Part shown: piece by piece, positions 34,909 through 37,285 of the stretch
Position numbering within the stretch: the stretch's first letter is position 1
How the letters are laid out: every line of letters begins with the position of its first letter
From: Acidocella sp. 20-57-95
GTDB taxonomy: Bacteria; Pseudomonadota; Alphaproteobacteria; Acetobacterales; Acetobacteraceae
Direction: 5' to 3'
Length of the DNA: 64,000 nucleotides
Assembly (NCBI GenBank): GCA_002255575.1
Contig: NCAT01000001.1
Span: 1 to 64,000, forward strand
Position numbers and translations under genes: made by a program
The notes under the pieces: model-generated
The model's input: the letters and a program-made list of their open reading frames with translations, nothing else
Databases searched by the model: none
Told to the model about the DNA's origin: nothing

Positions 34909-35060
34909 GTCAAAGAGAATCGGGGCAAAATCGACTCAAATCGCTTCCGAGTCGTTTAAAAATTTCATGCGAATCTCTGAGAGAATTGGAAAGAAGTTGT
35001 TTATGTTTTGTTCTAATTTTCAGCGCAGAACAAAGCCGCAACACATACCAAAAGAAAAAT

Positions 35061-35435
35061 CCAGACGGCCTATAAGCCGGGTTCTGTCCACGCTTTTGCA
35101 AGCGCTGGACGGCCATTCCTCTGGGACGTGTTTTGCAACACGCCTCGCGCGACCAACCCGGGCGACGGATCGAAAATACTCCCGCTTTCATGCTTTCGCA
35201 CAAAGCCGGCCGCCCCTATTCGGTCTTGCTCCCGGTGGGGTTTACCCTGCCAGCCTTGTTACCAAGGCCGCGGTGCGCTCTTACCGCCCCGTTTCACCCT
35301 TCCCTTCAGGCAAGCCTGGAAGGAGGTTTGTTTTCTGTGGCACTGTCCCTGGGGTCGCCCCCGCCGGCTGTTAGCCGGCACCGTATTTCCGTGGAGCCCG
35401 GACTTTCCTCCACCAAACTAGCTCATACACCGTCA
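35061..35435 (-). ncRNA. rnpB: RNase P RNA, bacterial type A
   Basis: Catalytic RNA of RNase P, which matures tRNA 5' ends. The minus strand reads the conserved 5' block GAGGAAAGTCCGGGCTCCA, then ACGGTGCCGGCTAACAGCCG, CCCCAGGGACAGTGCCACAG, GGTAAGAGCGCACCGCG, GGCAGGGTAAACCCC, GGAGCAAGACCGAATAGGG, CCCAGAGGAATGGCCGTC and the 3' block ACAGAACCCGGCTTATAGG, in the right order; P4 pairing is intact. The 3' end is placed at 35061. The 5' end is uncertain: GACGGT at 35429-35434 can pair with GCCGTC at 35064-35069 as a short P1, leaving only about 18 nt for the P2-P3 region. The 5' part overlaps the 3' end of the exosortase-like gene on the same strand. Confidence 0.93.
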
Positions 35436-36204
35436 ACCCAGGGCCATTATGCCACCAATCCCAGGCCTCAAAGCTGGGCACCATCAGACAGAGGCGAATT
35501 TCTGTCAGCGCGATGCTGGTGAGTAAAGCCGCCAGCAGCCAAGGCAGGTCCGTCCAGTTCAGAGCACGGCCCAAATAGAACTTTACCACGACATAAGCCA
35601 GAATAACGCTGCCGAGCGGCGCCAATGAGGAGCAACCCGTGAGGATGAGGATGCGGAAACTGCCATCGCCCACAATGGCCCCGCTGGCGGTAACGGCAAA
35701 ACCCAACGCACGCAGCAAAGCGGCCACCGCTTGGGCATCAAGCGGGGCAATCGGCAGGGTGAACCTGTCTAAAAACACCATCACGGCACTCAGCGCCAAG
35801 GCCAGCAAGAGCCAGCCAGCTTCCCGGCCAGCCCGTGCCACACATGGTTGCAGCAAGACCCCGGCGCCCAAGACCGCAATGGCGAGCACCGCCCCAAAAC
35901 CGGCAGGCACCAGGCGGACCGCCGCCAGAGCCAGCGCCAGGGCCGCCAGGATAATGTAACGCGCCATTGGCGGCGGTGCGAGCAACTGCCGGGCGCGGGC
36001 AAGTACCATCAGCCAGGCCGCAATATTGAAGGCGCCAAGATGGAAAAAACGATCAAGCCAGGTATCGGCGGCAAGGTTTGCATGCCAGACAAAAAATACG
36101 GCCAAAGCCCCGCAACCAAGGCCGGCCAACGCAAGACCTACCAGCATAGGGGCGTAAAGCCCGGCATCGCCCCAGCGGTAATTATTGGACCAACAATGCT
36201 TCAT
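35371..36204 (-). CDS. Exosortase/archaeosortase-family protein
   Basis: Polytopic inner-membrane cysteine transpeptidase, predicted to cleave a C-terminal sorting signal. 277 aa from ATG 36204. The frame is open another 168 codons upstream, but that part is antisense to the small secreted-protein gene and has no family sequence. About seven or eight hydrophobic segments. The catalytic triad of the family is recognisable: C191 in LTGCSSLAP, R237 in LTEIRLCL and H252 in WWHNGPG. After H252 the protein lacks the last membrane helix I would expect, and the final 16 codons are the conserved 5' block of rnpB read as protein. The proposed substrate is the divergent 67-aa gene 98 nt away. Confidence 0.8.
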   Translation of the reverse strand: MKHCWSNNYRWGDAGLYAPMLVGLALAGLGCGALAVFFVWHANLAADTWLDRFFHLGAFNIAAWLMVLARARQLLAPPPMARYIILAALALALAAVRLVPAGFGAVLAIAVLGAGVLLQPCVARAGREAGWLLLALALSAVMVFLDRFTLPIAPLDAQAVAALLRALGFAVTASGAIVGDGSFRILILTGCSSLAPLGSVILAYVVVKFYLGRALNWTDLPWLLAALLTSIALTEIRLCLMVPSFEAWDWWHNGPGLTVYELVWWRKVRAPRKYGAG

Positions 36205-36301
36205 AAATAAGTTGTAGGGCAAAAGCACGATTTGGGATATTAAGGTTGTAGCGATATTCGTGTTCGCAGTAACGTGCGAGCCATCACTTCGAGAGAATTT
36301 T

Positions 36302-36505
36302 ATGAAAACCGTATCGATCGTCGCAGCATGCTTGGTTGTGACCTTGTTCTCGGTGGCGCCGGCCTTCGCAGAGCAGAATGGTAATGGCGGGAACCCAGCT
36401 CCTGCGGCTGCCCCGGCCCCGGCGTTAGGGGCTGGCATTCCAGCGCTCCTCGCCGTTGGCGGTGGTGCGGCGCTGCTACGGTTGTTACGCAAGCGCGGGG
36501 AGTAG
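36302..36505 (+). CDS. Small secreted protein with C-terminal sorting signal (candidate exosortase substrate)
   Basis: 67 aa from ATG 36302; the GAGAG before it supports this start over an in-frame TTG at 36260. Residues 1-23 are a clear signal peptide ending in AFA. A 17-residue linker rich in Gly, Asn, Ala and Pro follows. Then comes a tripartite C-terminus: a PALGAGIP motif, a hydrophobic helix (about 43-59) and a basic tail RLLRKRGE. This is the architecture of PEP-CTERM-type substrates, with a motif I do not recognise as a named class. The processed peptide would be only some 20 residues. Divergent from the exosortase-like gene. Function beyond sorting is unknown. Confidence 0.75.
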   Translation: MKTVSIVAACLVVTLFSVAPAFAEQNGNGGNPAPAAAPAPALGAGIPALLAVGGGAALLRLLRKRGE

Positions 36506-36569: not shown

Positions 36570-36601
36570 ATGGATTGCTTCGCTCCGCTCGCAATGACGG
36601 G
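36570..36601. repeat. Short palindromic intergenic element
   Basis: ATTGC and GCAAT arms around a TTCGCTCCGCT loop, followed by GACGGG; it resembles the dispersed ATTGC-to-GCAATGACG elements common in proteobacterial intergenic regions. Only copy in this window. The 36506-36691 gap otherwise shows just a GGCCGC-AAA-GCGGCC hairpin at 36520 without a T run. Confidence 0.5.
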
Positions 36602-36691: not shown

Positions 36692-37285
36692 TCACGCGTG
36701 ATTAGCACTAAGAATTGTCCACAATGAATCGTTTGCTATGCAATAAATTCGGTGAAAATTTTCCCAATCAAATTTTGAATCTTGCATTACCCGCACTTTT
36801 AATTGCCCTTCAGTCAGTTGTGGCTTGCGCAAATTATTAAATTGCTCTTGCTCCATCTCAAAATTTTTATCGTGGAGTGGCGCTGCATATCTTCCCGCCC
36901 AGAACAATATTTGTTTTGCCCTCAACAGAATAAATTGATCGTTTTTACTTAACTTCGGAAGCTCAGCATCATTCCAAAGATGCAAAAGATCATGCGTAGC
37001 ACGAACACTCTTCTGCCCTAGTTTTCCGCAATTCTTTTCAATTCGTGCTGCGATTACAGCCTTGATGATCAGCTCCAAAGCTAGAGAGGCTTCGCGACCA
37101 AAGCTTTCGCCAAGGGCTACGCCAGGAGTTCCCGAATAACCTAATTCTGATTTGAAGTTATTGAGATCAGTTTGAATTAAGGACCACAAGACAAAGGCTG
37201 TGAAATGTGCATTTTCTGCCTTAGCTTCAAAGTGCAATGGGGCTTTTCGGCGCATCTCATGAATAGATTGAAATGTCTCATTCAT
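36692..37285 (-). CDS. Hypothetical AT-rich protein, possible HEPN-like fold
   Basis: 197 aa, soluble, mostly helical. Not confidently recognised. The pattern of an ELIIKAVIAAR helix, a RATHDLLHLWNDA segment and a later WAGRYAAPL segment recalls HEPN-domain proteins of the small, DUF type, but the catalytic RxxxxH of HEPN ribonucleases is not clearly present. The DNA is distinctly AT-richer than both neighbours, which suggests recent acquisition. It starts 21 nt after the amidase stop on the same strand, with a weak ribosome site. Confidence 0.68.
   Translation of the reverse strand: MNETFQSIHEMRRKAPLHFEAKAENAHFTAFVLWSLIQTDLNNFKSELGYSGTPGVALGESFGREASLALELIIKAVIAARIEKNCGKLGQKSVRATHDLLHLWNDAELPKLSKNDQFILLRAKQILFWAGRYAAPLHDKNFEMEQEQFNNLRKPQLTEGQLKVRVMQDSKFDWENFHRIYCIANDSLWTILSANHA

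What the first reader, a model, noticed from the sequence alone, without database searches (positions are those of the whole stretch)
35371..36505. Divergent exosortase-like gene and a 67-aa secreted mini-substrate as a stand-alone sorting pair
Seen: a polytopic protein with C191, R237 and H252 in the order of the exosortase triad, and 98 nt away on the other strand a 67-aa protein with signal peptide, short linker, PALGAGIP motif, hydrophobic helix and basic tail. Known: exosortases process PEP-CTERM-type tails, and some are dedicated to one target. Inference: this is a dedicated single-target system, with a motif I cannot assign to a named class, whose processed peptide is only about 20 residues. 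That is very short for a structural product and could be a signal or surface peptide.
Basis: partly seen in the sequence, partly recalled or inferred. Interest (0 to 1): 0.72.

Follow-up and report, generated by a model that had tools for sequence, protein, structure and literature searches.

The report
Dedicated exosortase with tiny single target
In a few species of the acid-loving bacterium Acidocella, a divergent protein-sorting enzyme sits beside one tiny secreted protein that carries the only matching processing tag found in the genome, so the two look like a private enzyme-and-target pair that could be tested directly.

Summary
Window 36204-35371 (-) encodes a 277-aa exosortase-superfamily protein (PF09721, above cut-off; C191/R237/H252). 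97 nt away, divergently, 36302-36505 (+) encodes a 67-aa protein: signal peptide, short linker, PALGAGIP motif, hydrophobic helix, basic end. The genus is Acidocella. The same divergent pair occurs in all five genomes found with this exosortase: four Acidocella (one clade, same site between an amidase gene and rnpB) and one MAG of another genus; 28 other Acidocella rnpB loci lack it. A tail profile finds exactly one strong hit per pair genome (E 1e-14 to 1e-18; next best 0.18 or weaker). The other-genus MAG also has a canonical exosortase with its own PEP-CTERM set. The tail is under strong purifying selection; the 8-13 residues before it are not conserved, which argues against a sequence-specific signal. 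No named subtype or tail class fits: a new variant of the known 'dedicated' exosortase system. Processing itself is undemonstrated.

The parts
35371..36204 (-). Exosortase-superfamily protein, 277 aa; C191, R237, H252; motifs GCSS, TEIR, HNGPG; final ~15 residues read from rnpB
   Evidence: (PF09721, 29.1 bits vs 25.7)
36302..36505 (+). 67-aa secreted mini-substrate: signal peptide 1-23, linker 24-36, PAPALGAGIPA motif and hydrophobic helix, basic end RKRGE
36413..36502 (+). Tripartite C-terminal sorting tail, consensus PAP-x-L-x-A-G-[IL]-P-A-x-x-A-x-G-G-G ... RLLRKR; dN/dS 0.04-0.16
36205..36301 (.). 97-nt intergenic region shared by the two divergent genes; candidate GAGAG ribosome-binding site before the small gene; no sigma-70 consensus found
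   Evidence: sequence
35057..35459 (-). rnpB (RNase P RNA class A) as matched by Rfam; the 5' strands of P1, P2 and P3 are replaced by exosortase coding sequence
35410..35425 (-). Junction of a ~124-nt deletion relative to the Acidocella orthologues (real or assembly error)

Best explanation
A dedicated exosortase system. The 67-aa protein is exported by Sec and cut by signal peptidase after AFA. It then stays in the inner membrane through its C-terminal helix, held by the basic end. The exosortase, with its Cys/Arg/His residues near the outer face, recognises the PAPxLxAGIPA motif and cleaves there, either releasing a roughly 20-residue Pro/Ala-rich peptide or joining it to a surface lipid or glycan. 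Shown here: gene arrangement, homology, exclusive pairing, and selection on the tail. Inferred: export, cleavage, any attachment, and location. Because the peptide itself is not conserved, its role is more likely that of a carrier or spacer for something attached at its new C-terminus, or a plain surface peptide, than that of a sequence-specific signal.
For: PF09721 match over cut-off; profile-profile match of the five orthologues with six other exosortases, probability 98.7%, E 1.8e-16 over 228 columns with Cys, Arg and His in register. Divergent pair kept in 5 of 5 genomes. Tail profile hits one gene per pair genome at E 3e-14 to 3e-18, and in these genomes the next best hit is 0.18 or weaker; three Acidocella without the exosortase give nothing better than 0.08. 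No PEP-CTERM (PF07589) and only one PF09721 protein in the window's genome. The other-genus genome G114 has a canonical exosortase and seven PEP-CTERM matches over cut-off in addition to this pair, which points to separate specificity. dN/dS: tail 0.04-0.16, exosortase 0.19-0.36. Pair species form one clade on the rsmH tree (100/99).
Against: No biochemistry on this or any close relative. Two of the three motifs reported invariant in EpsH (C-x-G, N-x-x-R) are changed to CSS and TEIR. In the window the exosortase lacks its last hydrophobic segment. The cargo is so small that the small protein could be a partner subunit rather than a substrate. Only five genomes carry the pair, four of them one clade. 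The tail profile was built from these same genes, so its strong self-hits are expected; the informative part is the absence of others.
Confidence: 0.72

Rival explanations
1. The small protein is not cargo but an obligate membrane partner or regulator of the exosortase: its hydrophobic segments stay in the membrane and the conserved tail is a docking surface.
For: Almost no cargo; the 8-13 residues between signal peptide and motif are unconserved; strict one-to-one linkage. Partner proteins encoded beside exosortases are known, e.g. the exosortase F system-associated protein beside XrtF in Flavobacterium.
Against: The layout signal peptide - linker - proline/glycine motif - helix - basic end is that of exosortase substrates (PMC1569441; PMC3237569); a clear AFA signal-peptidase site; G114 carries a much longer Gly/His-rich cargo before the same tail.
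Confidence: 0.17
2. A relic: the pair is losing function, at least in the window's species, where a deletion fused the exosortase to rnpB.
For: Loss of the last hydrophobic segment and of the native stop codon; absence of the pair from most Acidocella.
Against: Purifying selection on both genes across four species and all three triad residues kept; the same junction would also damage the only rnpB copy found in the genome, so an assembly error is at least as likely as a real deletion.
Confidence: 0.11

Closest known systems
Exosortase/PEP-CTERM (EpsH family, PF09721; Haft 2006, PMC1569441)
   Same: Polytopic membrane protein with Cys, Arg, His in order; targets with signal peptide and C-terminal motif-helix-basic tail
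   Different: CSS and TEIR instead of C-x-G and N-x-x-R; motif PAPxLxAGIPA instead of PEP; one target per genome instead of a median of eight; no exopolysaccharide locus beside it
Dedicated sorting systems as defined for rhombosortase/GlyGly-CTERM (PMC3237569)
   Same: One enzyme with one target encoded next door in genomes with a single target
   Different: Rhombosortase is an unrelated serine protease; here the genes are divergent and the target has almost no cargo
Exosortase V (NF035943), XrtD (TIGR04152), exosortase H (TIGR04177)
   Same: Best NCBIfam matches of the window protein (V, D) or of its G114 orthologue (H)
   Different: 17.2, 14.1 and 15.8 bits against cut-offs of 313, 400 and 86: not members
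XrtF and its adjacent partner in Flavobacterium johnsoniae (PMC10936215)
   Same: Variant exosortase with a neighbouring partner gene; targets predicted to be unlike PEP-CTERM; knockouts show surface-colonisation defects
   Different: Different phylum and subtype; the partner there has not been shown to be a tail-bearing mini-protein

Membership tests
Exosortase/archaeosortase superfamily (PF09721) | Profile match above the curated cut-off | tested here: met
   29.1 vs 25.7 bits in the window protein; the orthologues score below the cut-off one by one, but their joint profile matches other exosortases at 98.7%
Exosortase/archaeosortase superfamily (PF09721) | Cys, Arg, His triad in that order | tested here: met
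   C191, R237, H252, invariant in five orthologues
EpsH-type exosortase (Haft 2006) | Invariant motifs C-x-G, N-x-x-R, H-x-x-x-G | tested here: not met
   C-S-S, T-E-I-R, H-N-G-P-G: only the third motif is kept. The canonical G114 exosortase has CAG and NGLR
Exosortase V / XrtD / exosortase H subtypes | NCBIfam score above cut-off | tested here: not met
PEP-CTERM target | PF07589 or a named CTERM domain model | tested here: not met
   No NCBIfam or Pfam sorting-domain model above cut-off on the small proteins tested; no PF07589 match in the window's genome
Dedicated sorting system | One enzyme, one target, neighbouring genes | tested here: met
   by profile search, not by a whole-proteome tail scan
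Dedicated sorting system | Enzyme processes the target | not testable with these tools
   Needs protein chemistry
Exosortase fold | Three-dimensional fold | tested here: inconclusive
   AlphaFold models from 4-5 sequences have mean pLDDT 44-45; no related PDB chain found by sequence profile

The most novel reading that the evidence does not exclude
An unnamed exosortase subtype (GCSS/TEIR/HNGPG) with its own sorting signal (PAPxLxAGIPA) whose only target is essentially cargo-free, so that the product is not an anchored protein but a minimal peptide that serves as a carrier for whatever the enzyme joins to its new C-terminus.
Probability: 0.2. Interest if true: 0.7.

Novelty: new variant of a known kind. 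Interest (0 to 1): 0.45.

Why it matters
What exosortases do to their targets is known from few experiments, partly because most hosts have many targets. A 62-67-residue target with one enzyme, in a genome where no other target was found, is about the smallest natural test system one could ask for: the whole product could be read in one mass spectrum and the attached group, if any, identified.

Tried and rejected
Assignment to named exosortase subtypes or CTERM classes (NCBIfam, Pfam): rejected on scores. Recent arrival by horizontal transfer into the window's species: not supported, since GC and GC3 match the neighbours, the pair species are one clade, and the pair sits at one site. Plasmid relatives: none found. 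Structure comparison: models too poor to search. PDB relatives by sequence: none. Generalising the AGIP motif to other alphaproteobacterial exosortases: L015 (APAPLLGVGLPAF tail beside an exosortase) and L013 (two VPGPLEGVGLP tails) look similar in layout, but the tail profile only reaches E 0.03 for the first and did not list the second, so no common class is claimed. One intermediate tail alignment (A7) contained a typing slip and was not used.

Full report
What is there. The minus-strand ORF 36204-35371 encodes 277 aa with C191, R237 and H252. Pfam PF09721 (Exosortase_EpsH) matches above its cut-off, 29.1 vs 25.7 bits; no NCBIfam subtype does. The plus-strand ORF 36302-36505 encodes MKTVSIVAACLVVTLFSVAPAFAEQNGNGGNPAPAAAPAPALGAGIPALLAVGGGAALLRLLRKRGE, with a signal peptide ending AFA and a tripartite tail. 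The starts are 97 nt apart and divergent. In a rough scan with post hoc criteria it was the only signal-peptide-plus-tail ORF in 64 kb, and 20 Markov simulations of the window gave none.

Which organism. Named relatives with the same neighbourhood are Acidocella MAGs; the genomes of G334, G367 and G840, which match them, are in the same genus as the window's genome.

Distribution. A genus-wide look at rnpB loci and profile searches found the exosortase in four Acidocella genomes (window; G334 = L010/L050; G367 = L011/L051; G840 = L021/L052) and in G114 (L003/L053), a MAG of another genus in the same family. In all five a divergent small gene carries the same tail. In Acidocella the pair always lies between an amidase gene and rnpB; the 28 other Acidocella rnpB loci recovered lack it there, and in most the amidase gene lies directly beside rnpB. 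On the rsmH tree the three pair species with that gene are one clade (100/99); on the amidase tree the two that could be placed group together (98/90). GC and GC3 of the pair match the neighbours. One gain in an ancestor of the clade, or losses elsewhere, both fit.

One enzyme, one target. PF09721 finds one protein in the window's genome. A 31-position tail profile finds exactly one strong hit in each of the five pair genomes (window 3.1e-14, G334 1.8e-17, G367 3.2e-17, G840 3.0e-18, G114 2.6e-14) and nothing better than 0.18 besides; three Acidocella without the exosortase give nothing better than 0.08. The profile was built from these genes, so the value lies in the absence of others. PF07589 (PEP-CTERM) finds nothing in the window's genome, while G114, which has a canonical exosortase as well (192 bits, CAG and NGLR motifs), has seven matches over the cut-off. 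In G114 two systems therefore sit side by side with different tails.

What is conserved. Over the four Acidocella genes the tail has pairwise dN/dS of 0.04-0.16, whereas the stretch between the signal peptide and the PAP motif differs in sequence and length (8-13 aligned codons; 0.65 for window against G334, 0.10 between the closer G334 and G367). In G114 that stretch is a longer Gly/His-rich segment. A sequence-specific signalling peptide would be expected to conserve this part. The exosortase has dN/dS 0.19-0.36. Synonymous sites are close to saturation in several comparisons, so these values are approximate.

Relation to known exosortases. Haft and colleagues reported three motifs that hold the invariant residues of EpsH: C-x-G, N-x-x-R, H-x-x-x-G (PMC1569441). 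Here they read CSS, TEIR and HNGPG (HSGPG in G114). Profile-profile comparison with six other exosortases gives 98.7%, E 1.8e-16, with the triad in register; against a single canonical sequence it gives nothing. The protein is thus a member of the superfamily, outside the named subtypes and with two EpsH motifs changed. A sorting enzyme with a single target is what the rhombosortase paper calls a dedicated system, and such pairs tend to be neighbours (PMC3237569).

The window's exosortase runs into rnpB. Rfam RF00010 lies at 35057-35459 on the same strand. Compared with G840, G367 and G334, the window lacks about 124 nt: the last hydrophobic stretch and stop of the exosortase, the spacer, and about the first 30 nt of rnpB with the 5' strands of P1, P2 and part of P3. 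The 3' strands of P1 and P2 remain nearly unchanged. Its rnpB scores 276.5 bits, against 292 to 329 in the complete copies listed, and it is the only copy found. RNase P RNA is essential in bacteria (general knowledge), so an assembly error or a very recent deletion is likely. This weakens the claim that the pair works in this particular genome as assembled, not the claim about the family.

Mechanism. Sec export, signal peptidase cut, retention by the tail helix, recognition of PAPxLxAGIPA and cleavage by the Cys/Arg/His enzyme follow from the anatomy and the family; none was measured. Whether the roughly 20-residue product is released or attached to a surface molecule is open. Rivals are a partner subunit rather than a substrate, and a decaying relic.

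Limits. Five genomes, four of one clade, at least four of the five MAGs; AlphaFold models with mean pLDDT 44-45, not used; no whole-proteome scan for other tails; genome-wide absence of the exosortase was checked in about 20 same-genus genomes, elsewhere only at the rnpB site.

Noticed in passing
window 35371-35459 within 35057-35459 (-): The only rnpB copy found in the genome lacks its 5' end; an exosortase-rnpB junction replaces it (a ~124-nt deletion relative to relatives, or an assembly error).
   Followed up: yes
window 36692-37285 (-); L052 2447-3511 (-); L018, L036: The spot between the amidase gene and rnpB is a variable site in Acidocella, with different AT-rich orphan genes (41% and 40% GC); the L052 gene has a weak PADLOC match (PDC-S25, E 0.0023). 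No Pfam match for either.
   Followed up: partly
window 36573-36599 (+): Repeat-like sequence GATTGCTTCGCTCCGCTCGCAATGACG just downstream of the small gene (once in the window); a similar stretch appears near the small gene in L052.
   Followed up: partly
L015 927-1220 and 1255-2181; L013 236-541 and 2345-2734: Other alphaproteobacterial exosortases lie beside small proteins with GVGLP tails; possibly a wider, unnamed group of exosortase-target pairs.
   Followed up: partly
L003 2217-2678 (+); L015 2030-2605 (+); L014 1008-1574 (-); L017 974-1675 (-): An ORF of about 150-235 aa with an N-terminal hydrophobic segment follows several of these exosortases but is absent in Acidocella, where rnpB follows; no Pfam match for the L003 one. 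Similarity among these ORFs was not tested.
   Followed up: partly
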